Part shown: one piece after another, positions 20,981-39,863 of the stretch
Position numbering within the stretch: position 1 is the stretch's first letter
How the letters are laid out: each line of letters starts with the position of its first letter
Source of the DNA: Alphaproteobacteria bacterium
GTDB lineage: Bacteria; Pseudomonadota; Alphaproteobacteria; Rhizobiales; Aestuariivirgaceae
Reading direction: 5' to 3'
Assembly (NCBI GenBank): GCA_020441605.1
Contig: JAGRLX010000033.1
Location: 20,375-60,237 of the forward strand
Length of the DNA stretch: 39,863 nt
Made by a program: the position numbers and the translations under genes
Notes under the pieces: model-generated
The model's database searches: none
Seen by the model: only the letters and a program-made list of their open reading frames with translations
What the model was told of the DNA's origin: nothing

Positions 20981-23011
20981 ATGCGCAATGTACTCGGAAT
21001 TGACGTCGGTGGCACATTCACCGATTTCGTCGCCTATAATCCCCGGACCAAGGAGGTCCGGGTATGGAAGGAACTGTCGACGCCGACCGACCCGGTGACC
21101 GGCATCATCTCAGGTCTGGCCCAGCATCCTGACATCGAGGGGCTGGACAATCTCCGCATCGGCACCACGGTTGCGACCAACGCCCTGCTCGAGCGCAAGG
21201 GGGCAACCATCGCCTATGTCACCACCAAGGGGTTCCGTGACGTTCCTTTCATCCAGCGCGGCAATCGCAAGTTTCATTATGACATGAGCTGGGTCAAGCC
21301 CAAGCCCCTGGTGAAACGCCGGCACTGTTTTGAAATCAATGAGCGGATCGATGCCTATGGCAATGTGATAACGCCCATGGACGATGCCGAGGTCCGCCGG
21401 ATCGCTGCCGACATCAAGGCCATTCCCGAGATCAGATCGGTCGCGGTTTGCCTTCTGTTTTCCTATCTCAATCCGGCCCACGAGCTGAGGGTCCGCGATA
21501 TCTTGGCCGACGAACTGCCAGACCATGCCCTCTCCATCTCCTACCATGTACTGCCCAAGTGGAAGGAGTATGAACGGGCCTCTACTACCATCGCCGACGC
21601 CTATCTGAAGCCTGTGGTGAGCAGGCAGCTCAAGATGATGCGCGGCAGATTGAACGAGGCCAAGGTCGACGCGCCGGCGGTCATCATCAAGTCGAATGGC
21701 GGCGAAATGACCCTGGATGCCGCCTCGGAATCCCCGGCGCAGATGGTTCTGTCGGGGCCGACAGGTGGGGTCATTGCCAGCAGATATGTTGCCGAAGAGC
21801 TTGGCATCGACCATCTGGTCACCATCGACATGGGCGGAACCTCCACGGACGTCTCGACCGTCATTGGCCGCAAGGAAAGCTTCACCACTGCGTTCGAGAT
21901 CGAATGGGGCGTGCCCATCCAGGTGCCGATGATCGACATCCGGACGATCGGCGCCGGTGGCGGTTCAATCGCCTGGATCGACAAGGGCGGCATGCTGCAG
22001 GTCGGGCCGCAAAGTGCCGGTGCCAATCCGGGGCCGGCCTGCTATGGCCGCGGTGGCACCGACGCAACGGTAACCGATGCCAATCTTGTCCTTGGGCGGA
22101 TCAATGCCGAGAATTTCCTCGGCGGACGAATGAAGCTCGATCTCGCCGCGGCGCGCACCGCCATCGGAGTGGTCGCCAGCGCCCTCGGCCAGTCGATCGA
22201 GGACGCGGCGCTGGCCATTGCCCGCATCGTCGACAACAATATGGTAGGCGCGTTGCGCTCGGTGCTGATCGAGCGTGGCTTCGACCCGCGCGACTTCGCT
22301 CTCTGCACCTTTGGCGGCGCAACGCCATTGCATGTGACTGCGCTCATGCGTGAGATGGGCATTCCCCGGGCCATCGTGCCGGTTCACCCGGCGCAATTCT
22401 CGGCCTATGGCTTCATCATGACCAATGCTCGCGTCGACAGACAGAGGACGACACAGTTCATCTCGCTGCGTTTCGATGCCGAACGCGCAAACAGCATCAT
22501 GGACGATCTCGTCGCCGAGAGCCTGGCAGAACTGAAGTCCCAGGGCTATGAACGCGGGATCGAAGTCCATCGTGCGCTTGAGATGCGCTATCTTGGCCAG
22601 AACTATGAACTCGAGCTTCCGCTGACCATCACCAAGTTCACGCCAGGCAACATTGAGCAGATCTGGGCGACCTTCCACAAGACGCACAAGGCTCGCTTCG
22701 GATTTTCGACACCGGGCGAGATCATCGAGATCGTGAATTTCACAGTAACGGCAATTGCGCGGACGGCGAAGCCGGCCTTGACCGAGTTGCGTGCCGGCAA
22801 CTCGCGGCCGAAGCCGCGCCAGAAGCGCAAGGTCTGGTTCATCGGCGGTGCCCAGGACGTGCCGATCTATGACCGGTCCTCATTGCTGGCGGGACAGTCG
22901 ATCAAGGGCCCGGCCCTCATCGAGGAGTCCGCGTCCGTATCCGTCATCGAGCCCGGCTATCGGGTGAAGATCCATCCTCAGGGCCACATGCTCATCGATC
23001 AAGGGAAGTGA
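20981..23011 (+). CDS. HyuA-type hydantoinase/oxoprolinase subunit A
   Basis: A 676-residue ATP-dependent subunit of the hydantoinase/5-oxoprolinase/acetone carboxylase family. The N-terminal ATP-binding motif GIDVGGTFTDF is at residues 5-15, the TTVATNALLERKG segment near 65, and the second phosphate motif DMGGTSTDVS near 285. The C-terminal part follows the usual Hydant_A_C layout. An upstream in-frame start would overlap the aminotransferase and is not used; ACAGGA precedes the ATG at 20981. Such subunits phosphorylate the substrate carbonyl so that the partner B subunit can cleave or carboxylate it. HyuB starts three bases later. Possible substrates include hydantoins, lactams, oxoproline or ketones. 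Confidence 0.9.
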   Translation: MRNVLGIDVGGTFTDFVAYNPRTKEVRVWKELSTPTDPVTGIISGLAQHPDIEGLDNLRIGTTVATNALLERKGATIAYVTTKGFRDVPFIQRGNRKFHYDMSWVKPKPLVKRRHCFEINERIDAYGNVITPMDDAEVRRIAADIKAIPEIRSVAVCLLFSYLNPAHELRVRDILADELPDHALSISYHVLPKWKEYERASTTIADAYLKPVVSRQLKMMRGRLNEAKVDAPAVIIKSNGGEMTLDAASESPAQMVLSGPTGGVIASRYVAEELGIDHLVTIDMGGTSTDVSTVIGRKESFTTAFEIEWGVPIQVPMIDIRTIGAGGGSIAWIDKGGMLQVGPQSAGANPGPACYGRGGTDATVTDANLVLGRINAENFLGGRMKLDLAAARTAIGVVASALGQSIEDAALAIARIVDNNMVGALRSVLIERGFDPRDFALCTFGGATPLHVTALMREMGIPRAIVPVHPAQFSAYGFIMTNARVDRQRTTQFISLRFDAERANSIMDDLVAESLAELKSQGYERGIEVHRALEMRYLGQNYELELPLTITKFTPGNIEQIWATFHKTHKARFGFSTPGEIIEIVNFTVTAIARTAKPALTELRAGNSRPKPRQKRKVWFIGGAQDVPIYDRSSLLAGQSIKGPALIEESASVSVIEPGYRVKIHPQGHMLIDQGK

Positions 23012-23014
23012 ACC

Positions 23015-24955
23015 ATGCGCTTTTCCGACAATGGCTATTACATCGAAAAATACGTGAAATGCGCCAACTGCGGCATGCTGATCTACGGGTCAGGGCAGAA
23101 GCATGAGGTGGCGGGAAAATCGCAGATATATTGTACCGACTGGTGTGCCGAATGGGCCACGCTTCGCACGGAACGTGACGGCTACTTCCAGCTCAAGATC
23201 GTTCAACCGAAGCTCCCGGTGGAGATGAAAAAGACGCGCAAGGCCAAGCGCAAATCGCCCCCAGACATGGTGCTGATGAACATTCTCGATTCGACCATGG
23301 TGTCGATCTGCCGCGAGATGGGCATTCTGTTGATGAAGACGTCATATTCCACGATCTTCAACGAAGGACTGGACTTCACCTGCGCCCTGGCCGATGCGAA
23401 GGGGGACATGATCGCCTGCGCTGAGTTCTGTCCGACGATGATCGGCGGCATGCCGTTGCTGATCAAGACCTGTGCCCAGGAGATTCCCTTCGAAACCCTC
23501 GAGGACGGTGACATCATCCTGCACAATGATCCCTACCGCGGGGGGCTGCATTGCCCCGAGCATACGTTCTTCAAACCATTTTTCGTCGATGGCGAATTGA
23601 TGGGATTTGCAGTCTGCATCGGCCATATCGCGGAGATCGGCGGCATGGTGCCCGGTGCCTTCTGCGGCGAGGCAACCGAGATCTTTCACGAGGGTTTGCG
23701 GGTGCCCCCGGTGAAGATCCGCAAGGCCGGCAAGGACGTCGATGAAGTCTGGAAACTCCTGTTGGCCAATTGCCGCACGCCGCGCCAGAACTTCGGCGAC
23801 CTTTCCGCCATGATCGGTTGCGTCGATCTTGGCGTGAGCCGCATCACCGAAATCATCCGGAAGTATGGCAAGGACGTCTTCGGCCAGACCTGTGAAGACC
23901 TGATGGACTATGCCGAGCGCCGCATGCGCGCCGAGTTGTCGGCTTTTCCCGATGGCAAGTACGGCTTCCACGACATCATCGAGAACGATGGTATCGAGCG
24001 GAAACCCTATACCGTGGCCATCGACATGTATGTCCAGGGCGACGAGGTGGTAGCAGACTATTCAAGATCCTCGCAGCAGGCCAGAGGCCCCGTCAATGCG
24101 ACCCTTGGGGTTGCGACCGGCGCCGTCTACAATGGGCTCCTGCATATCACCGATCCATCGATACCGAAGAATTCCGGTGCCTTCCGTCCGATCCGCGTGG
24201 TGGCGCCTCCCGGGAAGGTCATCAACGTGGATTACCCCGGTCCACTGGTTGCAGGAAATACCGAGACCCATCCCCGTCTTGCCAATATCACCATCGGCGC
24301 CATGGGGGCCTGCGTGCCGGAACGTGTCATGGCCTCGGAGAGCTGCACGGGAACCAACTTCGTATTTGGCGGCAATCATCCGGACTATGACGAATATTTC
24401 GCCTGTTACGACATCATGTCGGGCGGCTGGGGCGGCCGTCACGGCCACGATGGCAACGATTGCGTGATCGCCATCAACGGCAATTGCCGCTTCAATCCGA
24501 CCGAAGTGTTCGAGACCCGCTTTCCGTTCCGTGTCGAGGATTGCGAGATGGTCCAGGACTCGGGTGGAGCAGGAAAATGGCGTGGCGGCCTTGGCTACCG
24601 CCGCACATTGCTTGCCACGTCGGTACCGATCACCGGCAGTCAGTGCAGCGACCGTCATGAGGTCAAGCCCTGGTCGATCTTCGGCGGCGTTCCCGGCGGA
24701 AACGGTGGCACCGAGATCCAGAAGGCCGGGGCCGAGGGGTGGAAGACCGTCCGTGAGCTCTATGGAAAGGTGTCTTCGAGCAAGTATGCCAACATCACGC
24801 TCGAACCGGGTGATCGCATACGGCTCACCGCGCCGGGCGGCGGTGGCTACGGCAATCCGGCCGATCGCGATGCCGGATCGATCGCTGAAGACGTCGCTGA
24901 AGGTTATGTGTCTTCGGCTTGTGCCCGCGAACTCTACGGTTACGACAACGGCTGA
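23015..24955 (+). CDS. HyuB-type hydantoinase/oxoprolinase subunit B with a four-cysteine N-terminal extension
   Basis: A 646-residue subunit, longer than the usual 520-590 residues. Residues from about 82 (PPDMVLMNILDSTMVSICRE) to the end are a normal Hydantoinase_B domain, with the HNDPYRGGLHCPEH segment, GGWGGRHGHDGND and C-terminal GGGGYGNPADRD. The first 68 residues are extra: C16-x2-C19 and C40-x3-C44 with intervening aromatic residues look like a small zinc-binding fold, joined by a basic linker (EMKKTRKAKRK, residues 70-80). HyuA is three bases upstream. Acetone carboxylase keeps a zinc-binding module on a separate small subunit; a fused equivalent is one reading, unproven. Confidence 0.88.
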   Translation: MRFSDNGYYIEKYVKCANCGMLIYGSGQKHEVAGKSQIYCTDWCAEWATLRTERDGYFQLKIVQPKLPVEMKKTRKAKRKSPPDMVLMNILDSTMVSICREMGILLMKTSYSTIFNEGLDFTCALADAKGDMIACAEFCPTMIGGMPLLIKTCAQEIPFETLEDGDIILHNDPYRGGLHCPEHTFFKPFFVDGELMGFAVCIGHIAEIGGMVPGAFCGEATEIFHEGLRVPPVKIRKAGKDVDEVWKLLLANCRTPRQNFGDLSAMIGCVDLGVSRITEIIRKYGKDVFGQTCEDLMDYAERRMRAELSAFPDGKYGFHDIIENDGIERKPYTVAIDMYVQGDEVVADYSRSSQQARGPVNATLGVATGAVYNGLLHITDPSIPKNSGAFRPIRVVAPPGKVINVDYPGPLVAGNTETHPRLANITIGAMGACVPERVMASESCTGTNFVFGGNHPDYDEYFACYDIMSGGWGGRHGHDGNDCVIAINGNCRFNPTEVFETRFPFRVEDCEMVQDSGGAGKWRGGLGYRRTLLATSVPITGSQCSDRHEVKPWSIFGGVPGGNGGTEIQKAGAEGWKTVRELYGKVSSSKYANITLEPGDRIRLTAPGGGGYGNPADRDAGSIAEDVAEGYVSSACARELYGYDNG

Positions 24956-27297: not shown

Positions 27298-28146
27298 TCA
27301 TGGATCTGTCCTGCCGATGAAATCCGCCGTGAGCCGCGAATGCTGATCGGCCAAGCCGTCGATGACGTCGAAATGATGCCGGCCCGGATCGTGGATGAGC
27401 TTGGTGTCGGCACCGAGTCCGGTCCAGATATTGGCGAGCAATTCGCTTTGCCGGAGGAACTCCGGGCGTTCGTCGCTGCCGACCCAGCAGGTCACATGGG
27501 CGGCGGGAACCGGCAGGAGCAGAGCGGGGCTTTCCCGCGCGGATTCGCCATATGCGTGAAACAGCTTGGGACCCATGCTGGTCCTTTCCAGCGGCCTGAG
27601 ATCATGCAGCCCGCTGATTGATAGGACATGAGCGATGCGCTGCTGAACACCGGAGCTAAGGGGGGCGTTCTGGCAGACCATCCGTGCGGCCAGATGGCCC
27701 CCGGCGGAGTGACCAGCGAGCCGGATTGGCCCGTTAACGAGAGTGGCGGCATGGTCCACGGCCTCAGCGATCTGCGCCGTGATCCGAGCGACGCTGCAGC
27801 CGGGTGCAAGGCTGTAGGATGGAAGGGCGACCGCCCAGCCTTTGTCCAGTGGGCCGCGGGCGAGGTGTGACCAACTCGACTTGTCGAAGTCCAGCCAATA
27901 GCCGCCATGAATGAAGACAGCGAGACCCAGCGGTTGGCGATCCGGCATGAACAGGTCGAGGACATTGCGCGCGGCAGGACCATAGGGGAGGTCCAGACGT
28001 GTGCATCCCTTACCCAATTGTTCGCGCCGGAAATCCCGCGCCTGGTCTGCCCATCTCTCCGGGAAAGCGGCTGCTCCGGCGATGTGGTCGCCATTGGCAT
28101 AGGCGTCATCCCAGTCGGTGATCATTTTCCAATGCTCATGCGCCAT
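27298..28146 (-). CDS. Alpha/beta hydrolase, candidate N-formylkynurenine formamidase (AFMID type)
   Basis: A 282-residue serine hydrolase. The oxyanion motif HGGYW is at residues 80-84, the nucleophile S147 is in GHSAGG, and D225 and H258 (HHFD) are likely triad partners. The HGGYW form and the start DWDDAYANGDHI resemble arylformamidases of the eukaryotic AFMID type, which hydrolyse N-formylkynurenine to kynurenine and formate. It is the last gene of a minus-strand operon (hydratase, dehydrogenase, thiolase, this gene), and its start overlaps the thiolase end by 11 bases. An in-frame methionine at 28125 is an alternative start. No metal-dependent KynB cyclase-family gene is seen among the kynurenine genes, so this protein would fill that step. 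Function inferred. Confidence 0.78.
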   Translation of the reverse strand: MAHEHWKMITDWDDAYANGDHIAGAAAFPERWADQARDFRREQLGKGCTRLDLPYGPAARNVLDLFMPDRQPLGLAVFIHGGYWLDFDKSSWSHLARGPLDKGWAVALPSYSLAPGCSVARITAQIAEAVDHAATLVNGPIRLAGHSAGGHLAARMVCQNAPLSSGVQQRIAHVLSISGLHDLRPLERTSMGPKLFHAYGESARESPALLLPVPAAHVTCWVGSDERPEFLRQSELLANIWTGLGADTKLIHDPGRHHFDVIDGLADQHSRLTADFIGRTDP

Positions 28147-29314
28147 GAAGGGCCAATGCCACACCCTGGCCGCCACCGACACAGAGCGTTGCCAGCGCTG
28201 TCCGCCCTCCACTTTCAAAAAGCCGCCTGGCGGCGGTGCCGGCAATGCGGGCCCCCGACATGCCGAGTGGATGGCCAAGGCTTATGCCGCCACCCCTGGC
28301 ATTCACATGGGCCGCATCATCGGTCAGGCCCCATGACCGCGTGCAGGCCAGCACCTGGGCGGCAAAGGCTTCGTTCAATTCGATGATGTCAAAGTCCTGC
28401 GGTGACAGACCGGTCCGGTCGCAGAGCTTCCGGACAGCGGCAATCGGACCGATCCCCATGATGCGCGGGGCGACACCGGCGCTGGCGGATTGGCCAATGC
28501 GCGCCAGCGGCGTCAAGTCAAATTTCTCCACGGCAGTTTCGGAAGCCAGCAGCACAGCCGCCGCACCATCGTTGATGCCGGAGGCATTGCCGGCCGTCAC
28601 GCTGCCGCCCTGTCTGAACGGGGTGGGCAGGGCCGCGAGTTTCTCAGGCGTGGTGATTCGGGGATGCTCGTCGGTGTCGACCATGATGCGCTCGCCTTTT
28701 CTTCCGCGGACCGCAAGCGGCGCAATGTCTGCGGCATGCCACTGGGCATCGTAACGTTGTTGACTACGGAGCGCATAGGCGTCCTGATCTGCCCGCGCGA
28801 TACGGAAATCGGCGGCAACATTCTCCGCCGTGTCAGGCATGGCGTCTGCGCCATAGCTGGCTGCGATCCGTTCATGAAGGAAGCGGAGTCCAATGGTCGT
28901 GTCGTGGAGTTCAGCGCGGCGCGAAAAGGCGCTATCCGCCTTTGGCATCACGAAGGGCGCCCGGCTCATGCTTTCGACCCCGCCGGCGATAACAATCTCC
29001 GCCGCGCCTGCGGCAATGGCCCGCGCCCCCTGGATAATGGCGTCGAGACCGGAGGCACACAGCCGATTGACCGTGACCGCCGGAACAGTGTCAGGAAGCG
29101 CGGACAACAGTACCGCCATACGGGCGACATTGCGCGAGTCCTCACCGGCCTGATTGGCGCAACCGAACATCACTTCGTCGACCGGCAGGCTTTCTCCGTC
29201 GAGCGTCGCGTCAATCACATGTGCTGCTAGCTCGTCCGGACGAACGGACGATAGCGTGCCGCCGTACCGTCCGATGGGTGTGCGCTTGAACCGGCAAATG
29301 AAAACGCCTGTCAT
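28136..29314 (-). CDS. Acetyl-CoA acyltransferase (PcaF-like thiolase)
   Basis: A 392-residue thiolase, which cleaves a 3-ketoacyl-CoA with free CoA. The nucleophile C86 is in TVNRLCASGLDAI, the catalytic H348 in GHPLGMSGAR, and the second cysteine C378 in CVGGGQG. The sequence around C86 and the N-terminus resemble the beta-ketoadipyl-CoA thiolases, so a dicarboxylic acyl-CoA is plausible. It starts with an ATG that overlaps the dehydrogenase stop by four bases. It should carry out the last cleavage in degradation of the ring-opened anthranilyl-CoA product. Confidence 0.9.
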   Translation of the reverse strand: MTGVFICRFKRTPIGRYGGTLSSVRPDELAAHVIDATLDGESLPVDEVMFGCANQAGEDSRNVARMAVLLSALPDTVPAVTVNRLCASGLDAIIQGARAIAAGAAEIVIAGGVESMSRAPFVMPKADSAFSRRAELHDTTIGLRFLHERIAASYGADAMPDTAENVAADFRIARADQDAYALRSQQRYDAQWHAADIAPLAVRGRKGERIMVDTDEHPRITTPEKLAALPTPFRQGGSVTAGNASGINDGAAAVLLASETAVEKFDLTPLARIGQSASAGVAPRIMGIGPIAAVRKLCDRTGLSPQDFDIIELNEAFAAQVLACTRSWGLTDDAAHVNARGGGISLGHPLGMSGARIAGTAARRLFESGGRTALATLCVGGGQGVALALHGA

Positions 29315-30441
29315 GTCAGCCGCTCCAGAATGAGGTTTACGAGATACCGCCCCTTGAGATGCGGCGGCGCGGCAGCCTCAAGAGATTTCAGTGTCTCCAC
29401 AACGCGATCGAAGCCATGTCGGCGGGCACTTTCAAATGGTCCCCGTGGGAAGTTGAGTCCCAGCCGCATCGCCGTGTCGATGTCTTGGGCGGCGAGATGG
29501 CCTTCAGCGAGAAGATCGGCGGCCTCGTTGGCCAGAGCCGCCTCGATGCGCAAGGCAATGGCCGCAGCATCAGCCGGAGCTGGGCCTGGCGCATCGGGAT
29601 AGATAAAGCCCCTGCCGGACTTCCGTCCCAGATCGCCAGATGCCACCTGGGCACGCAACGCCGCGAAGACATGGTAGCGTGGATGTCCACCCATTGCTGC
29701 TGCAAGACCTTCCGTAGCCGCAAGATTGATGTCCGCACCGATCAGGTCCATGAGGCTGAAGGGTCCGATTTTGTAGCCCGCCGCCAGCATCGCCGCGTCA
29801 ATGTCTGCGGGCGACCGGCCGTCTTCCAGCAGTGACAGGGCCTCGCCATAAAAGGGCCGGGCGCACCGGTTGACGATAAATCCCGGCCGGTCAGCGCAGG
29901 CAATCACGGTCTTTCCTGCCGCCTCGGTCACACGGCGGGCGCGTTCCACGGCCGCGGGTGCAGTTTCCGCATGGGTCGCGAGTTCGACCAGTTTCATGAC
30001 CGGTGGAGGATTGAAGAAATGCAGTCCCAGGACCCGCGCAGGGTTCCGGAGATCACGGGCGATCTCCGAGACCGAAAGCGAGGATGTGTTGGTGGCCAAG
30101 ATCGTGTCCCGACCGACGATTCCTTCCAGACGTGCCATGAGCGCCCGTTTCACCTGCAAGTCTTCCCTCACGGCTTCGATAACGAGCGAAGCCGATGCCA
30201 GCGCCTCGGGATCCGGCACGATGTCCAATGCGGCCAGTGTGGCGTCTCGCGCCTCCGCCGCAAGCTTGCCCGCCTTGACCCTGCTCTCGAGCATTTTCGC
30301 GAGCTGCGCCATCGCCCGGTCGCGAGCCCCGGCGTCTGCGTCCGTTGCAAGGACCCTGTTGCCAGCCTGGGCAAACACCTGGGCTATGCCGAGCCCCATG
30401 GTGCCCAGGCCAACGACGCCAATCGTCATCATTGCGCTCAT
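29311..30441 (-). CDS. 3-hydroxyacyl-CoA dehydrogenase (PaaH-like)
   Basis: A 376-residue NAD-dependent dehydrogenase. The Rossmann motif GLGTMGLG is near residues 11-18, NTSSLSVSEIA near 115, FFNPPPVMKLVE near 140, and PGFIVNR near 185 starts the C-terminal domain. A second C-terminal domain repeat follows, as in PaaH-type enzymes. It oxidises a 3-hydroxyacyl-CoA for the thiolase encoded next. Both ends overlap neighbours by four bases (ATGA), so the three beta-oxidation genes form a tightly coupled unit. Confidence 0.92.
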   Translation of the reverse strand: MSAMMTIGVVGLGTMGLGIAQVFAQAGNRVLATDADAGARDRAMAQLAKMLESRVKAGKLAAEARDATLAALDIVPDPEALASASLVIEAVREDLQVKRALMARLEGIVGRDTILATNTSSLSVSEIARDLRNPARVLGLHFFNPPPVMKLVELATHAETAPAAVERARRVTEAAGKTVIACADRPGFIVNRCARPFYGEALSLLEDGRSPADIDAAMLAAGYKIGPFSLMDLIGADINLAATEGLAAAMGGHPRYHVFAALRAQVASGDLGRKSGRGFIYPDAPGPAPADAAAIALRIEAALANEAADLLAEGHLAAQDIDTAMRLGLNFPRGPFESARRHGFDRVVETLKSLEAAAPPHLKGRYLVNLILERLT

Positions 30442-31196
30442 TCGCCCCTGAACTCCGCCTTGCGCTTGTTACGGAATGCGGCGATGCCTTCTTGCTTGTC
30501 GGCGCTGTCGAGCAATGTTTCGAATGCGCTGCGTTCCGTCGCGAGCGCGAGTGCACTCTCTTCGCCTTCCACCAGCGCGCGTTTGGCCGCCATCATCGCC
30601 AGTGGCGCGCGCTGCGCCAGCTTCGTGCAGAGCGTTTCGGCTTGTCCCACAGCCGAACCTACGACCCGCCAGCCGACAATGCCCCAGGATTCGGCCGTGG
30701 CAGCATCGATGATTTCGCCGGCCAGTATCAGCCGCGCGGCCCGGGCTCGGCCTGCAAGTGCCATGAGACGCTGGCCGCCGCCAGCTCCGGGAATGAGACC
30801 GAGACTGGTTTCCGGCAAGCCGAACTTCGCCGTCTCGCCGGCGACGAGGCAATCGGCCATGAGGGCCAGTTCGAATCCGCCGCCAAGACAGTAGCCATCA
30901 ATGGCGGCGACGATCGGCTTGGGAAAGGCCCGGATGCGTGACCAATAGGATTTGCGCGGGTCTGCCGCGCCCTCTGCGCTGGACTTGGTCTCGATCTCGC
31001 CGATGTCGGCGCCGGCGGCGAAGTCGCCTCCCGTCCCATGCAGCAGGACGGCGCGGCAATCGGGGTCGATCGCCAGCTCGCCAAGCAAAGTGGCCAGCCT
31101 GCCGAGCAGGGCGGTATTCAGCGCATTGCGCACGGCGGGCCGGTTGAGGCACAGGCGAACCCACTTCTCCTGCGGTTCCACGATCAGGTCTTCCAT
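30438..31196 (-). CDS. Enoyl-CoA hydratase with both catalytic glutamates
   Basis: A 252-residue crotonase. The oxyanion segment AAGADIGEI is near residues 60-68. Both catalytic acids of the hydratase family are present: E109 in GGGFELALMAD and E129 in FGLPETSLGLIPGAGGG. It should therefore be a true hydratase acting in beta-oxidation. It is the first gene of the minus-strand operon, divergent from the monooxygenase/reductase gene across a 112-base region that carries the tandem operator. Compare the second crotonase at 34046-34858, which has lost both acids. Confidence 0.92.
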   Translation of the reverse strand: MEDLIVEPQEKWVRLCLNRPAVRNALNTALLGRLATLLGELAIDPDCRAVLLHGTGGDFAAGADIGEIETKSSAEGAADPRKSYWSRIRAFPKPIVAAIDGYCLGGGFELALMADCLVAGETAKFGLPETSLGLIPGAGGGQRLMALAGRARAARLILAGEIIDAATAESWGIVGWRVVGSAVGQAETLCTKLAQRAPLAMMAAKRALVEGEESALALATERSAFETLLDSADKQEGIAAFRNKRKAEFRGE

Positions 31197-31224
31197 TCCT
31201 GCACAATGCGCCTGCCGGTAAAAT

Positions 31225-31252
31225 TTTCAAGCCTGAAATTTTAAGCTTGAAA
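31225..31252. promoter_or_regulatory. Two abutting 14-bp pseudo-palindromes: candidate MarR operators
   Basis: TTTCAAGCCTGAAA (31225-31238) is followed without a gap by TTTTAAGCTTGAAA (31239-31252). Each is close to the perfect palindrome TTTCAAGCTTGAAA, with one or two mismatches. They lie in the middle of the 112-base divergent region between the hydratase gene and the monooxygenase/reductase gene. Each orientation also offers a TTGAAA hexamer that could serve as a -35 element, so binding could block both promoters. The MarR-family regulator encoded in the plus-strand operon is the obvious candidate to bind here. The repeats are seen; the regulator is inferred. Confidence 0.6.
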
Positions 31253-31297
31253 TTGTTTGGTCTTGCATGCAGTCTTCGGGTGGCGAGCAAGCCATCC

Positions 31298-31303
31298 TGG
31301 AGG
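31298..31303 (+). promoter_or_regulatory. Ribosome binding site deciding the monooxygenase/reductase start
   Basis: TGGAGG ends five bases before the ATG at 31309. The in-frame ATG at 31267 has no such site, and only the shorter protein starts directly at the FAD-binding strand. Confidence 0.65.
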
Positions 31304-31308
31304 CCTAC

Positions 31309-33594
31309 ATGAAGGTGCTATGTCTCGGCGGCGGTCCAGCGGGTCTCTATTTTGCGATCAGCCTCAAGCTGCGTGATCCCCGGCACGAGGTGACCGTTCT
31401 CGAGCGCAATCGGGCCAATGACACTTTCGGCTGGGGCGTGGTCCTGTCGGATGATGCGCTCTCGCTGATGCAGAAGAATGACCCGAAGAGCACGGCCGCC
31501 ATTCGTGCCAACTTCGCCTATTGGGACGACATAGCCGTTGTGCACAAGGGCGTTCGCACCGTTTCCGGCGGCCATGGCTTTGCCGGTATCGGCCGCAAGA
31601 CCCTGTTGATCCTGCTGCAGGAGCGCGCCCGGGAGCTCGGCGTCGAGATGCGTTTCCAGACCGAGTTCCAGTCGGCCGAACACTATCGCAAGGAATTTGA
31701 CCTCGTCGTTGGTTGCGATGGCATCCATTCGCTGGTGCGCCGGGAATATGCTGATGTCTTCAAACCCGATATCGACCTGCGCCTGTGCAAGTTCGTCTGG
31801 CTTGGCACCCATCAGAAGTTCAACGATGCCTTTACCTTCATCTTCGAGCAGACGGAACATGGCTGGATGTGGGCCCATGTCTATCAGTTCGACGCGGATA
31901 CGGCGACGTTCATCGTTGAGTGCCTGCCCGAGACCTGGGAGCGCTGGGGTTTTGCGGGCATGTCCAAGGAGCAAACGGTCGCAACCTGCGAACAGATCTT
32001 CGCCAAGCATCTGGGCGGACACGCCCTCATGTCTAACGCGGCCCATTTGCGCGGTTCGGCGGTGTGGATGCAGTTTCCGAGGGTCATATGCGAACGATGG
32101 TATCACGAGAATGTGGTCTTGATGGGCGATGCCGCGGCGACCGGGCATTTCTCCATCGGGTCCGGTTCCCGGCTGGCATTTGATTCCGCCATCGCCCTCG
32201 CCGACTACCTTCACTCCGAACCGACCATGGCGCGGGCGTTCCAGCGCTACCAGGACGAGCGGCGGCTGGAGGTTCTCCGATTGCAGTCTGCGGCGCGCAA
32301 CTCGCTCGAGTGGTTCGAGCAGATCGACCGCTACTTGAACATGCCGCCCGAGCAGTTTGCCTATTCGCTGTTGACCCGCAGCCAGCGCATCAGTCACGAA
32401 AACCTGCGTCTGCGCGATCGCGAGTGGCTGCGCGCGGTTGAGGACTGGTTCCAGCGGCAGGCCGGGGGGCGCCCCGGCCGTGCCCCGATGTTCGCGCCCT
32501 TGCAGCTTCGCAACATGGTGCTGGAAAACCGTGTCGTGGTATCGCCTATGGCACAATACAAGGCGCTCGATGGCTGTCCCACCGACTGGCATCTTGTGCA
32601 CTACGCCGAACGTGCCAAGGGCGGCGCCGGGCTCGTCTGTACCGAAATGACCTGCGTGTCCGCCGAAGGACGCATTTCGCTCGGTTGTCCAGGCCTCTAC
32701 GCACCAGAGCATGAGGCTGCATGGCGGCGGATCGTCGATTTCGTTCATGCCGAAACCCGTGCGAAGATCTGCTGCCAGATCGGGCACGCCGGCCGTAAGG
32801 GCTCGACCCAGCTCGGCTGGGAGGATGGTGATGCCCCACTGAGGGAGGGCAACTGGGAGGTATGGTCGCCCTCGGCGATACCGTGGTCGCCGATTAACCA
32901 GGTACCCCGTGCCATGGACCGCCAGGCCATGGACCGGGTGAAGGCCGAGTTCGTGTCAGCCGTGAACATGGCGTCACGCGCCGGGTTTGACATGATCGAA
33001 CTGCACGCCGCCCACGGCTACCTGATCTCGTCCTTTATCTCGCCCGTCTCCAATCTGCGCGCCGATGAATATGGCGGCAGTCTCGAGAACCGGGTGCGCT
33101 ATCCCTTGGAGGTGTTCTCGGCAATGCGTGCGGCCTGGGGCGAGGAACGGCCCATGGCGGTGCGCATCTCGGCGACCGACTGGGTGGGCGAGGCTGGCGT
33201 GACGCCGGAAGACGCTGTCGAAATCGCCAGAATCTTCGCAGCGGCAGGAGCAGACATCATCGATGTCTCGGCCGGGCAGACATCGGTCGAAGCAAGACCC
33301 GTTTACGGGCGCATGTTTCAGACGCCGTTCTCGGATCGCATTCGCAACAGCGCAGGTCTGGCGACCATGGCCGTCGGCAACATCTATGAAGCGGATCATG
33401 TCAATTCGATCCTCATGGCAGGGCGGGCCGATCTGGTCTGCCTGGCACGTCCACATCTGTCCGATCCATATTGGACGTTGCACGCAGCCATACAACTCGG
33501 TGACACCGAGACCGCATGGCCCTTGCCATATCTCCGCGGACGCGATCAGGCGGCACGGTTGAACCAACGGGCCCAGGAGATGATCCGGGCATGA
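31309..33594 (+). CDS. abmA: 2-aminobenzoyl-CoA monooxygenase/reductase-type flavoprotein fusion
   Basis: A 761-residue fusion of two flavoproteins. Residues 1 to about 385 are a salicylate-hydroxylase-type FAD monooxygenase: GGGPAG at 7-12, GCDGIHS at 135-141, and the GD motif at 273-274 ([12 protein letters not shown]). Residues from about 394 are an old-yellow-enzyme domain: QIGHAGR at 490-496 and HAAHGYL at 566-572. This architecture belongs to 2-aminobenzoyl-CoA monooxygenase/reductase of Azoarcus evansii, which yields 2-amino-5-oxocyclohex-1-ene-1-carbonyl-CoA, and to salicylyl-CoA 5-hydroxylase. The anthranilate-forming kynurenine genes in the same operon favour 2-aminobenzoyl-CoA here. 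It is first in the plus-strand operon. The gene symbol is by analogy. Confidence 0.88.
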
Positions 33595-34049
33595 ACTTGC
33601 CGCCGACCGCTGGTTCCATGTCCAAGAGCCGCCTGAAAATGTGGATCAGGTTACTTGGTGTGACGCGCGGTGCTGAAAATCACTTGCGCGAGTTCATGCG
33701 CGTTAACCACAACACCACCTTGCCGCGCTTCGATGTTCTCGCGGCGCTTCATCGTCGTCGTGACGGCGTTACGATGTCAGAATTGAGCCGCATGCTGCTG
33801 GTTTCCAACGGCAATGCCACGGCTGTCGTGGACCGCCTGGAGCAGGACGGCCTGGTGGAGCGCAAGTCATCCGATGCCGACCGGCGTAGCGTTTATGTGT
33901 CGCTCACCCCGAAAGGCCTGGAACGATTCGAAGTCCTGGCCGCAGCCCATGAGAGCGAAGTGAGCAGGCTCTTTGCCGCCATGCCGGACACGGATGTCGA
34001 CGCCCTGACGACGCTGCTGAAACGAATCGCCAAAGGAGAGAAGGATTGA
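33591..34049 (+). CDS. MarR-family transcriptional regulator
   Basis: A 152-residue winged helix-turn-helix regulator. The DNA-binding part spans about residues 45-112, with [21 protein letters not shown] as recognition region (key part [15 protein letters not shown]) and the wing [13 protein letters not shown]. The ATG overlaps the monooxygenase/reductase stop by four bases; methionine 10 is an alternative start. The Azoarcus anthranilyl-CoA cluster also contains a MarR-like gene. Such regulators are usually repressors released by an aromatic CoA ester, so it may sense 2-aminobenzoyl-CoA and bind the tandem operators at 31225-31252. Being second in the operon, it would control itself. Confidence 0.9.
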
Positions 34050-34858
34050 CCAAGCTCCAGGGACTGCAGCCTCAGCACTTCCTCTGGCAGGCGCGTGATC
34101 GCATTGCCACGATCCGTCTCAATCGCCCGGATCGGAAGAATCCCCTGACCTTCGATAGCTACGCGGAATTGCGCGACACCTTCCGCGCCGTTGCCTACGC
34201 GGAAGATATCGATGTGATCGTGTTTGCCTCGAACGGCGGCAACTTCTGCTCGGGCGGAGACGTTCACGATATCATCGGCCCACTGACGAAAATGAGCATG
34301 AAGGACCTTCTGGCCTTCACGCGGATGACCGGCGATCTTGTGAAGGCCATGATCGGTTGCCACAAGCCGGTCATCGCTGCCGTAGAAGGCGTATGTGTCG
34401 GTGCCGGAGCAATCATCGCCATGGCGTCGGATCTCCGACTTGCAACGCCGGAAGCGCGGACGGCCTTCCTGTTTACCCGCGTCGGACTGGCCGGATGCGA
34501 TATGGGCGCCTGCGCCATTCTTCCGCGGATAATTGGACAGGGACGCGCGGCCGAGCTTCTTTACACCGGCCGCGTGATGACGGCCGAAGAAGGTGAACGC
34601 TGGGGTTTCTGGAACGCGCTTCACGCCGCGGACAGCCTGGAAGCCGAAGCGATGGCTATGGCTGCCCGCATTGCGGCTGGACCGACCTTTGCCCATGGCA
34701 TTACCAAGACGCAACTCAACCAGGAATGGAACATGGGGTTGGAGCAGGCCATCGAAGCCGAGGCCCAAGCCCAGGCCATCTGCATGCAGACAATGGACTT
34801 CGAACGGGCCTACCGGGCGTTTGCCGCCAAGGAAAAGCCGGTGTTTGAGGGGAACTGA
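34046..34858 (+). CDS. Atypical crotonase (enoyl-CoA hydratase/isomerase family) lacking both hydratase glutamates
   Basis: A 270-residue crotonase. The oxyanion-hole segment [10 protein letters not shown] is at residues 67-76, and the second oxyanion loop [15 protein letters not shown] follows near 115-129. Where a hydratase has its two catalytic glutamates, this protein has I123 and R145. It is therefore unlikely to hydrate a double bond by the usual mechanism. Crotonases without these acids include ring-cleaving hydrolases such as BadI. The start is a TTG at 34046 that overlaps the MarR stop (TTGA) behind AAAGGAGAGAAGGA. Its place between regulator and acyl-CoA dehydrogenase suggests a pathway-specific step, perhaps ring opening. 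Confidence 0.85.
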
Positions 34859-34859
34859 C

Positions 34860-35996
34860 ATGACCGGTGACGCTCACTTTTCCTGGCCGTTCTTCGATGA
34901 CCGGCATCGCGAGTTAGTCGGCAATCTCCACGATTGGTGCAGGACCAACCTGCCTGTCGATCATGATGACGTGGACCAGGCCTGCACATCGCTTGTGGCC
35001 CAGCTGGGGCGTGACGGCTGGTTGAAACACACGGGCGCGGATGAGGGCGAACGGCTCGACGTGCGGACGCTTTGCCTCATCCGCGAGACCATTGCCCAAT
35101 ATGACGGCCTCGCCGAATTCGCGTTTGCCATGCAGGGACTGGGGATGGGGGCCATTTCACTGTTCGGGTCGCCAGCGCAGCGTGCCTGGCTCGCGCGCAC
35201 GCGTGCCGGCAAGGCGATAGCGGCTTTCGCCATGACCGAACCCGCCGCCGGCTCCGATGTCGCTGCGACGGCGTCCACGGCTACGCGCACCGGGAATGGC
35301 TATGTGCTTAGTGGTGAAAAGACCTATATCTCGAACGGCGGCATTGCCGACATCTATGTGGTCTTCGCACGAACCGGCGAAGCGCCGGGCGCCAAGGGAC
35401 TATCCGCCTTTCTCGTGCCCGCCGATTTGCCGGGATTTGAGGTCGTCGAGCGGATCGACGTCATTGCGCCGCATCCCCTGGCGCTGATCCGCTTTACCGA
35501 TGTTGCGCTGCCCGACGAAGCTCTGATCGGCAAGGCCGGAGAGGGCTTCAAGATTGCCATGTCGGTCCTCGACGTGTTCAGGTCAACGGTGGGCGCTGCG
35601 GCCCTCGGCTTTGCCCGGCGAGCCCTCGCTGAAAGCCTCGGCAGGGTGCGCGCCCGCAAGATTGCCGGCGCGCCCCTGTCGGAATTGCAGTTGGTCCAGG
35701 GACACATCGCCGACATGGCGCTCGAGATTGATGCGGCCGCTCTCCTTGTCTACCGCGCGGCCTGGACCAAGGACATGGGGGCAGCGCGCGTGACCCGCGA
35801 GGCTGCGATGGCCAAGCTCTACGCCACCGAGGCGGCACAAAGGGTGATCGACGCCGCCGTGCAACTGCATGGCGGCGACGGCGTGCGGCGTGGCACCACC
35901 GTTGAGAGCCTCTATCGCGAGATAAGGGCACTGCGCATCTACGAGGGCGCGTCCGATGTGCAGCGGGTTGTCATCGCGCGATCGGTTCTGGCCTGA
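34860..35996 (+). CDS. Acyl-CoA dehydrogenase
   Basis: A 378-residue FAD enzyme that introduces a 2,3-double bond into an acyl-CoA. The first signature ([18 protein letters not shown]) is near residues 120-137, the KTYISNGG motif near 155, and the catalytic glutamate is in [12 protein letters not shown] near the C-terminus. All domains of the family are present and length is normal. The ATG lies one base after the crotonase stop, behind GAGGGG. A longer in-frame start overlaps the crotonase and is rejected. It should act on the ring-opened or reduced intermediate before the canonical hydratase of the divergent operon. Confidence 0.92.
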
Positions 35997-36009
35997 AGGG
36001 AAAACGGCA

Positions 36010-36453
36010 ATGTCCTCACTGCACCACGTCCTCCATCCGAAATCCTGGAAGCGGGCGGCAGGCTATTCAAACGGAATCGCAGCATCCGGCCGACTGATCT
36101 TCTGTGGCGGCATGGTCGGCTGGAATGCCGATCAGCTGTTCGAGAGCGATGATTTCATCGCCCAGGCGGAACAGACGCTGCGGAATATCGTCGCCGTGCT
36201 CGCCGAGGCGGGCGCCGGACCGGAACACCTGGTCCGACTCACCTGGTATGTCATCGACAAAGCGGAGTATCTGTCACGCCTCGCCGAGCTGGGCCGGGTG
36301 TATCGCAATGTCATCGGACGCCACTATCCGGCCATGGCCCTGGTGCAGGTGGTCGGCCTTGTCGAGGACAGGGCGAAGATTGAAATCGAAGCGACGGCCG
36401 TCATTCCCGAAGAGCGCGGGCATGAAGCTAGCCGCGCGATCACGGGAGCCTGA
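36010..36453 (+). CDS. Rid-family (YjgF/YER057c/UK114) protein
   Basis: A 147-residue protein of the Rid family, typically a trimer with active sites between subunits. The conserved stretches SGRLIFCGGMVGW, AEQTLRNIVAVLAEAGAGPEHLVRLTWYV (in part QTLRNIVAVLAEAG) and KIEIEATAVI are present. The arginine that RidA uses (position 105 in the enteric protein, in VEVARLP) is a glycine here (VQVVGLVED), so classical imine deaminase activity is uncertain. Some Rid proteins, such as 2-aminomuconate deaminase, act on enamine acids. The Azoarcus anthranilyl-CoA cluster also encodes a protein of this family. A role in removing the ring amino group is plausible but unproven. Confidence 0.87.
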   Translation: MSSLHHVLHPKSWKRAAGYSNGIAASGRLIFCGGMVGWNADQLFESDDFIAQAEQTLRNIVAVLAEAGAGPEHLVRLTWYVIDKAEYLSRLAELGRVYRNVIGRHYPAMALVQVVGLVEDRAKIEIEATAVIPEERGHEASRAITGA

Positions 36454-36457
36454 TGTC

Positions 36458-38098
36458 ATGCTCGGACCCTCGGGCCATGTGGACACTTTCTGCCGGGACC
36501 GTTTGCCGCCGGTGGCGGACTGGCCGGACATGCGGCTTGACGGATTTGACTACCCCGACTGGCTCAATGCCGCCGTGGAACTGACCGATCGCATGGTTGA
36601 CAAGGGTTTCGGTGACCGCGTGGCGCTCATCGGCAATGGGCGGCAACGGACCTACAAGGAACTGACCGATTGGTCTAACCGCCTCGCCCACGCGCTGGTC
36701 GATGACTATGGCATCAGACCCGGCAACCGTGTGCTGATCCGCTCCGCCAACAATCCCGCCATGGTCGCCTGTTGGCTCGCCGTGACCAAGGTCGGGGCCG
36801 TCGCGGTCAACACTATGCCGATGCTCCGTGCGGGCGAACTTTCCCAGATCGTTGATCGAGCGGAAATCGGTACCGCGCTTTGCGACACGCGCCTGATGGC
36901 CGAGCTGGTCGCTTGCGAACGTGGCTCCGGCTTCCTCAAGACGGTCGTTGGCTTCGACGGGTCGGCCAATCATGATGCCGAGCTGGATCGGATGGCGCTG
37001 GCAAAGCCGGTGAAATTTTCGGCTCCGCCGACCGGCCGGGACGATGTCGCGCTGATCGGGTTCACCTCCGGCACCACCGGCGAACCGAAGGGCGCGATGC
37101 ACTTCCATCGCGATATTCTGATCATCGCCGATGGCTATGCCCGTGAAGTGTTGAATGTGGTCCCGGATGACGTATTTGTCGGGTCGCCGCCTTTGGCTTT
37201 CACCTTCGGGCTTGGCGGACTGGCAGTATTTCCACTTCGTTTCGGCGCCGCCGCCGCGCTGCTCGAGCAGGCAACACCCCCAAACCTGGTTGACATCATC
37301 GGCCAGCATCGGGCCACGATCTGCTTCACGGCGCCCACAGCCTATCGCGCGATGCTGAAGGCCATGGCGGAAGGTGCGGATCTCTCGTCCTTGCGTATCG
37401 CGGTATCGGCTGGAGAGACGCTGCCCGCACCGGTCTATGAAGAGTGGATAGCCCGAACCGGCAAACCCATGCTCGATGGCATCGGTGCAACCGAGATGCT
37501 CCACATCTTCATTACCAACCGGCTTCACGATCACCGGCCCGCCTGTACCGGCAAACCCGTCCGGGGATATGAGGCGATGATTGTTGACGAGGATGGCATG
37601 GAGAGGCCGCGGGGAGAAGTGGGCAGGCTCGCCGTCAGGGGTCCCACCGGGTGCCGCTACCTCGCCGATCCGCGGCAGAGAACCTATGTGCGCAACGGCT
37701 GGAACCTGACCGGGGACAGCTTCTGGCAGGACGACGACGGCTATTTCCGCTTCGCTGCCAGATCCGACGACATGATCGTATCGTCTGGCTACAATATCGC
37801 CGGACCGGAAGTGGAGGCAGCACTGCTGGGCCACCCCGATGTTGTGGAGTGTGCGGTCATCGGCGTGCCGGACGAAGAACGAGGAACGATTGTCGAGGCA
37901 TATGTGGTGCTGGTTAGCGGCAAGGTTGGCGACGCCCTGATGACTCGGATGCTGCAGGATCACGTCAAGGCCGTCATCGCCCCTTACAAGTATCCACGGC
38001 GAATCGTCTATGTCGACGGCCTTCCCAAAACCCAGACCGGCAAGATCCAGAGATTTCGACTTCGCCACCCTGAGACACAGAACGGAGCGCCGACATGA
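36458..38098 (+). CDS. abmG: 2-aminobenzoate-CoA ligase-type acyl-CoA synthetase
   Basis: A 546-residue AMP-forming ligase of the benzoate-CoA ligase group. The ATP-binding loop [10 protein letters not shown] is at residues 203-212, the ATEMLHIF motif near 345, the hinge [18 protein letters not shown] follows, and the catalytic lysine K529 is in [12 protein letters not shown]. It would activate anthranilate to 2-aminobenzoyl-CoA, the substrate of the fusion enzyme. Substrate choice is inferred from the neighbours. The ATG at 36458 follows GGGAG; an ATG at 36422 that overlaps the Rid gene is an alternative. The stop overlaps kynA by four bases. The symbol is by analogy with Azoarcus evansii. 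Confidence 0.88.
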
Positions 38099-38937
38099 CC
38101 GTTGCCAGCAGCTATGATCCGTCAAATGAAGGTGTGCAAATGCACTTCGACGGCCGCATGTCCTATGGCGACTACCTCCGTCTTGACCGGATCCTCGAGG
38201 CTCAGGAGCCATTGACATCGGCCCATGATGAGATGCTGTTCGTGATCCAGCATCAGACGTCGGAGTTGTGGATGAAGCTCGCCATTCACGAGCTGTCTGC
38301 CGCCCGTCAGGCGATCGCATCCGACAATCTGCCGCCGGCGATGAAGATGCTGGCGCGCGTCTCGCGCATCTTCGAGCAATTGAATAACGCCTGGGATGTG
38401 CTGCGGACCATGACCCCCAGCGACTATACGCATTTCCGCAAGCAGCTTGGACAGTCGTCAGGTTTTCAGTCCTGGCAATACCGTCTCATCGAATATCTGC
38501 TCGGCAACCGCAACCATGCCATGTTGCGCCCACATGCCCATGTGCCGAAGGTGGCTGACCTGCTCGAGGCCGAGCTGGATAGGCCAAGCTTCTATGACGA
38601 GGTTCTGCGGCTCGCCGCGCGAAGGGGCGTCGCGATGCCTGTCGAAATCATCGACCGCGATGTGCGTGACACGCATCACTTCAACCCGGAGGTCATGTCG
38701 GCCTGGCGTCAGGTCTACGAGGCTCCCGAGCGCTACTGGGCATTATATGAGCTTGCTGAAAAGCTGGTCGACTTCGAGGACTATTTCCGCCGATGGCGGT
38801 TCAACCATGTGACGACGGTTGAAAGGGTGATCGGCTTCAAACGCGGGACGGGAGGAACCGGTGGGGTGTCATATCTCAAGCGCATGCTGGAAATCGAGCT
38901 CTTTCCAGAACTTTGGCGGGTGCGGACGGAACTTTGA
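38095..38937 (+). CDS. kynA: Tryptophan 2,3-dioxygenase
   Basis: A 280-residue heme dioxygenase that opens the indole ring of tryptophan to N-formylkynurenine. The distal histidine H53 is in [12 protein letters not shown], and the axial heme ligand H238 is in [15 protein letters not shown], followed by the conserved [11 protein letters not shown] loop. These positions agree closely with characterised bacterial enzymes, and length is normal. The ATG overlaps the ligase stop (ATGA), so it is co-translated with the anthranilate-CoA genes. It is cytoplasmic and probably active as a tetramer. This is a confident identification. Confidence 0.96.
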
Positions 38938-38967
38938 CGATTTCGGATGGCGATCGGCGGAAACGTC

Positions 38968-38972
38968 AAGGA
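38968..38972 (+). promoter_or_regulatory. Ribosome binding site deciding the kynU start
   Basis: AAGGA abuts an ATG at 38973 and lies nine bases before a second in-frame ATG at 38982. The spacing favours the second ATG, which shortens the protein by three residues. Confidence 0.6.
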
Positions 38973-38981
38973 ATGAGTGAA

Positions 38982-39863
38982 ATGACAGATTTTGAACTGA
39001 CGCGAAGCCTGTTCGAACTACCCCCGGGCATCACATATCTGGATGGAAACTCGCTGGGTCCCCTGCCGCGCGCGGCCATCGCCAAGGTGTCGCATGTCAT
39101 GGCTGAAGAATGGGGCAAAGAACTCATCCGAGCCTGGAATACGGCGGGTTGGTTCACCCAGCCGCGCCATGTGGGCGACCGCATCGCGAAACTCATCGGC
39201 GCCGAGCCTGGTTCGGTGATGATGGGCGACACGCTGTCGATCAAGGTCTACCAGGCGCTCGCTGCGGCCCTCGACCTCAACCCCGCCCGCAGGGTTGTTC
39301 TCTCCGATGCCGGCAATTTTCCCACCGATCTCTATGTGGCTGAAGGACTGATCAAATCCCTCGGCAGGGGTCATGAACTCCGGTTGGTGGCGCCCGAGGA
39401 TGTCGAGAGAAACATTACGGACGAGGTGGCTGCGTTGCTGTTGACCGAGGTCGATTATCGTACCGGGCAGCGATATGACATGACGCGATTGAGCCGCGTC
39501 GCCCGCGAATGCGGCGTGCTGACGATCTGGGACTTGGCGCATTCCGCCGGGGCCTTCCCCGTTGGTGTCGCAGCCGCTGGCGCCGATTTCGCAGCAGGTT
39601 GCACCTACAAGTATCTGAACGGCGGCCCGGGTGCGCCGGCCTTTGTATATGTCGCGCCACGTCACGCCGAATCCGCACGTGCGGCGCTTTCGGGTTGGAT
39701 GGGGCATCGGCGGCCGTTTGCCTTCGTGCCCGATTATGAACCGGCGGGCGGGGTCGAAAGAATGCGGGTGGGAACGCCGCCGGTGCTGGCTTTGGCGGTG
39801 CTCGAAGCCGCACTGGATATCTGGGATCAGGTCGATCTCACGGACGTCCGGAAGCAGTCCATC
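38982..39863 (+). CDS. kynU: Kynureninase (partial, C-terminus beyond the window)
   Basis: 294 residues of a PLP enzyme that cleaves kynurenine to anthranilate and alanine. The start LFELPPGITYLDGNSLGPLP is the family N-terminus, DLAHSAGAFP carries the PLP-binding aspartate (D184), and the PLP lysine K210 is in GCTYKYLNGGPG. About a hundred or more residues of the usual 400-420 are missing because the window ends. The gap after kynA is 44 bases with no terminator seen. With kynA and the AFMID-like hydrolase it would feed anthranilate to the ligase. Confidence 0.95.
   Translation, partial: MTDFELTRSLFELPPGITYLDGNSLGPLPRAAIAKVSHVMAEEWGKELIRAWNTAGWFTQPRHVGDRIAKLIGAEPGSVMMGDTLSIKVYQALAAALDLNPARRVVLSDAGNFPTDLYVAEGLIKSLGRGHELRLVAPEDVERNITDEVAALLLTEVDYRTGQRYDMTRLSRVARECGVLTIWDLAHSAGAFPVGVAAAGADFAAGCTYKYLNGGPGAPAFVYVAPRHAESARAALSGWMGHRRPFAFVPDYEPAGGVERMRVGTPPVLALAVLEAALDIWDQVDLTDVRKQSI

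What the first reader, a model, noticed from the sequence alone, without database searches (positions are those of the whole stretch)
27298..39863. Single locus apparently encoding tryptophan to anthranilate to 2-aminobenzoyl-CoA to beta-oxidation
Two divergent operons together hold every enzyme class needed: KynA, an AFMID-like hydrolase, KynU, an anthranilate-CoA-type ligase, the monooxygenase/reductase fusion, a Rid protein, two crotonases, acyl-CoA dehydrogenase, hydroxyacyl-CoA dehydrogenase, thiolase and a MarR regulator. The anthranilyl-CoA half is known from Azoarcus evansii; its direct translational coupling to kynA (ATGA overlap with the ligase) makes this look like a dedicated aerobic tryptophan-degradation route that avoids anthranilate dioxygenase and catechol.
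Basis: partly seen in the sequence, partly recalled or inferred. Interest (0 to 1): 0.75.

Follow-up and report, generated by a model that had tools for sequence, protein, structure and literature searches.

The report
Tryptophan breakdown via anthraniloyl-CoA locus
This stretch of what looks like an alphaproteobacterial genome holds, in two back-to-back operons, genes to break tryptophan down through anthranilate joined to coenzyme A; the route itself is known, but the comparison adds a shared control site and candidate enzymes for two poorly assigned steps.

Summary
In detail: two divergent operons encode an alpha/beta hydrolase, thiolase, 3-hydroxyacyl-CoA dehydrogenase and crotonase, and opposite them the monooxygenase/reductase fusion (ACMR), MarR, crotonase, acyl-CoA dehydrogenase, Rid, aryl-CoA ligase, KynA and a KynU cut by the window end. 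The ligase is 54% identical to a ligase shown in print to activate anthranilate. In 149 related genomes KynA occurs in 47 of 51 with ACMR and 20 of 98 without; anthranilate dioxygenase reached its cut-off in none. A palindrome between the operons recurs before ACMR in 78 of 80 relatives, and in 17 of 29 detached kyn-operon promoters of ACMR genomes against 0 of 49 in genomes without ACMR, so both halves look like one regulon. The pathway is not new: it is named in print, and other genomes hold nearly the same set in one locus. Newer points: the hydrolase may be the missing kynurenine formamidase; the Rid has Met in place of the RidA arginine; the locus lacks an SDR found in most relatives. No activity was tested.

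The parts
27298..28146 (-). alpha/beta hydrolase with HGGYW motif; proposed N-formylkynurenine formamidase of a kyn-linked clade (NCBIfam calls the family 'hormone-sensitive lipase')
   Evidence: NF058665 360 bits; PDB sequence matches at E 0.01 are only 2pbl, 9n8r and 4e11 kynurenine formamidase; tree
28136..29314 (-). thiolase, nearest 3-oxoadipyl-CoA thiolase models
   Evidence: 565 bits, under the cut-off of 605
29311..30441 (-). 3-hydroxyacyl-CoA dehydrogenase
30438..31196 (-). crotonase-family protein, nearest PaaF model (under its cut-off)
31224..31253 (.). putative operator: two overlapping 16-bp palindrome-like sites (31224-31239 and 31238-31253) between the divergent operons, the only two matrix hits in the window
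31309..33594 (+). ACMR: FAD monooxygenase fused to old-yellow-enzyme reductase, 761 aa (2-aminobenzoyl-CoA monooxygenase/reductase type)
   Evidence: NF006101 1269 bits, PF01494 + PF00724; 50% to the pAL1 protein
33591..34049 (+). MarR-family regulator, presumed to bind the operator
   Evidence: MarR in 74 of 80 ACMR loci
34046..34858 (+). crotonase-family protein (PRK08258 equivalog); possible ring-opening or hydratase step (inferred)
   Evidence: 485 bits over 330
34860..35996 (+). acyl-CoA dehydrogenase
36010..36453 (+). Rid-family protein with Met at the RidA catalytic-Arg position; possible deaminase of the cyclic enamine-CoA (inferred)
36458..38098 (+). AMP-forming 2-aminobenzoate (anthranilate)-CoA ligase
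   Evidence: best PDB match 4wv3 anthranilate-CoA ligase, 300 bits; 54% over 535 aa to the pAL1 ligase
38095..38937 (+). KynA, tryptophan 2,3-dioxygenase
   Evidence: TIGR03036 425 bits over 390.7
38973..39863 (+). KynU, kynureninase, cut by the window end
   Evidence: TIGR01814 203 bits on the part present

Best explanation
A dedicated aerobic tryptophan degradation unit. KynA opens the indole ring to N-formylkynurenine; the hydrolase removes formate; KynU releases anthranilate and alanine; the ligase makes 2-aminobenzoyl-CoA; [quoted passage not shown] a deamination (perhaps Rid-assisted) and beta-oxidation-like steps follow. The MarR protein presumably represses both operons through the double palindrome between them and is released by a pathway intermediate. 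Shown here: genes, order, kinship, co-occurrence, operator conservation. In print for relatives: anthranilate-CoA ligase activity of the pAL1 ligase and the ACMR reaction. Inferred: activity of these proteins, the formamidase and Rid roles, MarR binding and ligand, all steps after ACMR.
For: Family models and PDB matches; ligase and ACMR 54% and 50% identical to the Arthrobacter pAL1 pair, whose ligase activity was measured (PMC3534580, passages); ACMR/KynA 47 of 51 versus 20 of 98 in 149 family genomes, and 32 of 42 versus 26 of 257 in 299 phylum genomes; KynA within 12 kb of ACMR in 17 of the 47; other loci with both halves together, L082-L084; operator in 78 of 80 ACMR upstream regions, in 17 of 29 detached kyn promoters of ACMR genomes and 0 of 49 of genomes without ACMR; anthranilate dioxygenase over cut-off in 0 of 149.
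Against: No enzyme or growth test. KynU incomplete. The SDR-type gene of 72 of 74 relatives is absent. Detached hydrolases carry no operator, 0 of 40, and 39 of those 40 fall in another clade. Only 21 of 80 ACMR loci have kynA close by at the thresholds used, 10 the hydrolase and 8 kynU. 12 of 29 detached kyn promoters of ACMR genomes lack the site. NCBI names the fusion a salicylyl-CoA hydroxylase. 11 of 51 ACMR genomes also carry a 3-hydroxyanthranilate dioxygenase, so another tryptophan branch can coexist. Cupriavidus metallidurans CH34, listed with abm and kyn genes, did not grow on anthranilate (PMC8879955, passages). [quoted passage not shown]
Confidence: 0.87

Rival explanations
1. The cluster degrades salicylate: the ligase makes salicylyl-CoA and the fusion is a salicylyl-CoA 5-hydroxylase, as NCBIfam names it; the kyn genes are neighbours only.
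For: NF006101 carries that name and the window protein passes its cut-off.
Against: The same label sits on the fusion of plasmid pAL1, from a strain whose anthranilate CoA-thioester route and ligase activity were measured and which did not grow on salicylate; the best ligase structure match is anthranilate-CoA ligase; kynA co-occurrence and operator sharing.
Confidence: 0.04
2. The lower pathway serves anthranilate from any source (indole, environmental anthranilate) and tryptophan is only one feeder that happened to be captured into this operon.
For: kynA is close by at only 21 of 80 ACMR loci; the pAL1 pair serves anthranilate from quinaldine; 10 of 42 ACMR genomes in the phylum sample lack KynA at the threshold.
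Against: KynA in 47 of 51 ACMR genomes of the family, and the shared operator at detached kyn operons.
Confidence: 0.12
3. The hydrolase is not a formamidase but an esterase or CoA thioesterase; N-formylkynurenine is hydrolysed by another enzyme or spontaneously.
For: HaHSL, after which the family is named, was studied as a lipase/esterase (PMC6921082, listing and passages); detached homologues lack the operator.
Against: The KynB model has no match at E 1e-20 in 149 of 149 relatives; sequence match to Drosophila kynurenine formamidase at 1.7e-16, one of only three PDB matches at E 0.01; kyn-linked members lie apart from nearly all detached ones on the tree.
Confidence: 0.27

Closest known systems
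2-Aminobenzoyl-CoA (abm) pathway of Azoarcus evansii, Schuhle et al. 2001 (paper not held; reactions seen in the review PMC4539516)
   Same: Ligase, monooxygenase/reductase fusion, beta-oxidation enzymes, and (recalled from its abstract) a MarR regulator and a putative translation inhibitor, an old name of Rid proteins.
   Different: As I recall, no kyn genes in those clusters and an ABC substrate-binding protein, which these two operons lack. Sequences were not compared here.
Anthranilate CoA-thioester genes of Arthrobacter sp. Rue61a plasmid pAL1 (NC_009453)
   Same: Ligase 54%, fusion 50%, Rid 34% identical; its Rid also has the Met variant.
   Different: Anthranilate comes from quinaldine; PaaX-type regulators, no kyn gene annotated in the 50 kb seen.
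[quoted passage not shown] 2014)
   Same: As I recall its abstract, tryptophan goes through kynurenine and 2-aminobenzoate, then as in Azoarcus. Only its title was seen here, in the reference list of PMC5643483; the paper is not held.
   Different: Degradation genes described as scattered over the chromosome (recalled); here one locus.
   Same: Hydrolase, ACMR, MarR, crotonase, acyl-CoA dehydrogenase, ligase, kynA and kynU within 20 kb; L083 and L084 also Rid, L084 also thiolase.
   Different: Order and strands rearranged; PaaF/PaaH-like matches only 34-42% identical; 0.76-0.83 kb between ACMR and marR, none here. No Rid or thiolase was assigned in L082.

Membership tests
2-aminobenzoyl-CoA (abm) pathway | single protein fusing an FAD monooxygenase and an old-yellow-enzyme reductase | tested here: met
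   NF006101 over cut-off, PF01494 and PF00724
2-aminobenzoyl-CoA (abm) pathway | AMP-forming ligase of the anthranilate type | tested here: met
   by homology only: 54% to the pAL1 ligase, best PDB match 4wv3
2-aminobenzoyl-CoA (abm) pathway | beta-oxidation enzymes, MarR regulator and Rid-type protein in the cluster (definition recalled) | tested here: met
[quoted passage not shown]
   needs enzyme assay
kynurenine route to anthranilate (kynABU) | tryptophan 2,3-dioxygenase | tested here: met
   TIGR03036 425 over 390.7
kynurenine route to anthranilate (kynABU) | kynureninase | tested here: inconclusive
   clear match but truncated by the window end, under the cut-off
kynurenine route to anthranilate (kynABU) | metal-dependent formamidase KynB (TIGR03035) | tested here: not met
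   not listed for any of the 15 window proteins scanned with NCBIfam (upstream genes not scanned) and 0 of 149 relatives; an alpha/beta hydrolase stands in its place
hormone-sensitive lipase family HaHSL (NF058665) | curated score cut-off | tested here: met
   360 over 320; the three PDB matches at E 0.01 are a putative esterase, 'Lipase 1' and kynurenine formamidase
RidA imine deaminase | catalytic arginine | tested here: not met
   Met at that place in 61 of 61 rows, window and pAL1 included (register by the alignment)

The most novel reading that the evidence does not exclude
One MarR-type regulon binds tryptophan, kynurenine and anthraniloyl-CoA breakdown together across Rhodobacteraceae and kin; within it, a clade now named hormone-sensitive lipase is the missing kynurenine formamidase, and a Rid subfamily with Met instead of the catalytic Arg deaminates the cyclic enamine-CoA made by ACMR, giving a first function to an Arg-less Rid group.
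Probability: 0.33. Interest if true: 0.6.

Novelty: new member of a known kind. Interest (0 to 1): 0.4.

Why it matters
GapMind left out tryptophan degradation through anthraniloyl-CoA monooxygenase/reductase for lack of knowledge (PMC9007349, passage). The locus and its relatives supply candidate genes, a shared operator that predicts the regulon, and two specific enzyme hypotheses for steps with no assigned gene in these bacteria. They also suggest that two database names (salicylyl-CoA 5-hydroxylase, hormone-sensitive lipase) mislead for these proteins.

Tried and rejected
Salicylate route: rejected as above. Chance neighbourhood of kyn and ACMR genes: rejected by co-occurrence and operator data.

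Twenty of the 22 were fetched; 13 lie inside a mechanical reading frame of 200 aa or more, and only one strong and one weak pair of neighbouring frames recurred. Not followed.

Operator at detached hydrolase genes: 0 of 20 in ACMR genomes and 0 of 20 in others, a result against full regulon membership of that gene. A supposed SDR remnant in L007 and the window: the matching residues come from the 60 bases of the marR start that my script had included in those frames, so I dropped it. The first synteny run used a wrong ligase frame, corrected.

Rows dropped or moved: one search left out L106 (kyn genes lie next to the ligase there) and L115 (a genome with a near-cut-off ACMR); the ACMR-negative kynA genomes G166 and G169 were not fetched (ACMR scores below the cut-off); L133 fell into the kynU-only group because its kynA is under 40% identical; of 56 kynU-only genomes without ACMR 32 were fetched (my count). 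Counting G084, G166 and G169 as ACMR-bearing gives KynA in 50 of 54 against 17 of 95. The operator consensus was taken from the window; the matrix was built from the 80 relatives, not from kyn loci. Relatedness of genomes was not corrected for. In one search two duplicate rows were removed before the tree, and its bootstrap had not settled.

Full report
What is there. The window segment 27298-39863 holds two divergent operons separated by 112 bp. Minus strand: crotonase (30438-31196), 3-hydroxyacyl-CoA dehydrogenase (29311-30441), thiolase (28136-29314), alpha/beta hydrolase (27298-28146), each overlapping the next. Plus strand: ACMR fusion, MarR, crotonase, acyl-CoA dehydrogenase, Rid, ligase, KynA, KynU, with gaps from -4 to +35 nt. 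KynU runs off the window.

Ligase and fusion. The ligase's best match among solved structures is anthranilate-CoA ligase 4wv3 (300 bits), ahead of benzoate-CoA ligases (261 bits or less). On Arthrobacter plasmid pAL1 the adjacent AMP-binding protein and fusion, which I take to be the ligase and monooxygenase/reductase of the paper, are 54% and 50% identical to the window's. In that paper, extracts of E. coli with the ligase gene activated anthranilate, anthranilate-grown cells held anthraniloyl-CoA, and neither catechol nor salicylate supported growth (PMC3534580, passages). The public record names the plasmid's fusion 'bifunctional salicylyl-CoA 5-hydroxylase/oxidoreductase', so the NCBI name is not evidence for salicylate. 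[quoted passage not shown]

Link to tryptophan. At set identity thresholds these hold MarR in 74, crotonase 1 in 73, acyl-CoA dehydrogenase in 69, ligase in 61, Rid in 60, the dehydrogenase, crotonase and thiolase of the minus operon in 33, 21 and 18, kynA in 21, the hydrolase in 10 and kynU in 8 of 80; many loci are cut by contig ends. In 149 genomes of one family, ACMR passes its cut-off in 51, and KynA (E 1e-80 or better, 67 genomes, 43 over its cut-off) is present in 47 of those 51 against 20 of the other 98 (Fisher p 5e-18). In 299 genomes of the phylum the figures, at E 1e-250 for ACMR and 1e-70 for KynA, are 32 of 42 and 26 of 257 (p 1e-18). KynA lies within 12 kb of ACMR in 17 of 47 family genomes holding both. 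Three other genomes hold hydrolase, ACMR, MarR, crotonase, dehydrogenase, ligase, kynA and kynU in one locus, in different orders (L082-L084). Single-locus grouping is therefore recurrent, not unique. These p values ignore shared ancestry.

Operator. The 112-bp region holds TTCAAGCCTGAA and TTTAAGCTTGAA, starting 14 bp apart. Within 200 bp upstream of ACMR, 78 of 80 relatives hold a 10-of-12 match to the second; the median 12-mer of the same region is found in 3 of 80. A matrix built from the ACMR sites of the relatives finds only these two sites in the 39.9-kb window. Applied to kyn operons that lie away from ACMR, its best hit passes the 99% level of random windows in 17 of 29 ACMR-bearing genomes and in 0 of 49 genomes without ACMR (0 of 16 with kynA, 0 of 33 in the kynU-only group; Fisher p 8e-10). 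In some genomes the strict pattern TTYAAGCTTRAA occurs just twice, before ACMR and before kynU (G010, G003, G175, G064). This supports one regulator for both halves. That the adjacent MarR is this regulator is inferred.

Formamidase. The metal-dependent KynB model matches 0 of 149 family genomes at E 1e-20, while the hydrolase family NF058665 is found in 123 of 149 (119 over its cut-off) and kynureninase in 123 of 149 (121 over). The window hydrolase matches Drosophila kynurenine formamidase (1.7e-16) and two bacterial-type hydrolase entries, 2pbl and 9n8r, and nothing else at E 0.01. The HGGYW motif and the Ser and His of the triad are invariant among five kyn- or ACMR-linked members. On a tree of 61 rows, 39 of 40 detached members plus one linked one are set off from the other rows by a branch with 100/99 support; the window falls with the linked ones, that is, members lying in loci fetched for ACMR or kyn genes. 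The study behind the family name treats the protein as a lipase/esterase; the strings 'kynuren' and 'formamidase' do not occur in its main text. The detached members lack the operator (0 of 40), so their role is open.

Rid and SDR. The position of the RidA catalytic arginine is Met in 61 of 61 aligned rows: the window, pAL1 and 59 Rid matches over 100 aa from the 80 loci (alignment to YabJ). [quoted passage not shown] the second point speaks against a deaminase role. Which subfamily this Rid belongs to was not tested. ACMR's product is an enamine, so deamination of it remains a testable guess. In 72 of 74 relatives with an assigned gene downstream, more than 0.5 kb separates ACMR from the next cluster gene and holds a stop-free stretch of 245-299 aa; plasmid relatives annotate an SDR oxidoreductase there. 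The window and L007 have no such gap and L066 only 111 bp. Two SDR genes far upstream in the window are only 29-37% identical to these in the rows shown.

Alternatives for anthranilate. Anthranilate 1,2-dioxygenase reached its cut-off in 0 of 149 family genomes; 3 have weaker matches. 3-Hydroxyanthranilate dioxygenase is in 16 of 149, 11 of them among the 51 with ACMR.

Known or new. Price et al. [quoted passage not shown] A Cupriavidus genome paper lists abm and kyn genes, and reports no growth of that strain on anthranilate (PMC8879955, passages). I recall that Druppel et al. 2014 showed tryptophan degradation through kynurenine and 2-aminobenzoate in Phaeobacter; only the title was seen, in a reference list. 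Ten paper searches (some listings capped) showed, by title and abstract start, no paper on this operator or on this hydrolase family as formamidase; none searched for the operator sequence itself, and most subscription papers are not in that library. I therefore file the locus as a new member of a known kind, with three new testable details.

Noticed in passing
149 family genomes: Kynureninase is present in 59 genomes that lack KynA at the threshold used, so there it may serve another source of kynurenine.
   Followed up: no
NC_009453 26656-29049 (L081) and NCBIfam NF006101: The name salicylyl-CoA 5-hydroxylase sits on a protein of a strain with a measured anthranilate CoA-thioester route and no growth on salicylate.
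   Followed up: partly
G024 C2:79295: One operator-like site outside ACMR and kyn genes lies about 190 bp upstream of a 3-hydroxyanthranilate dioxygenase gene.
   Followed up: no
L219 1925-2386 and L226 2569-3054: A small conserved protein (76% identical over 148 aa) lies next to operator-like sites in two ACMR genomes; possible further regulon member.
   Followed up: no
window 19591-24955: Class-III aminotransferase and hydantoinase/oxoprolinase-type genes lie beside the locus; no link to it was tested.
   Followed up: no
window 16304-17479: Acetamidase/formamidase family gene (PF03069), about 10 kb from a formate-releasing pathway; may be coincidence.
   Followed up: no
window 585-1418: Beta-keto acid cleavage enzyme gene (PF05853) upstream of which lie transporter-type genes.
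   Followed up: no
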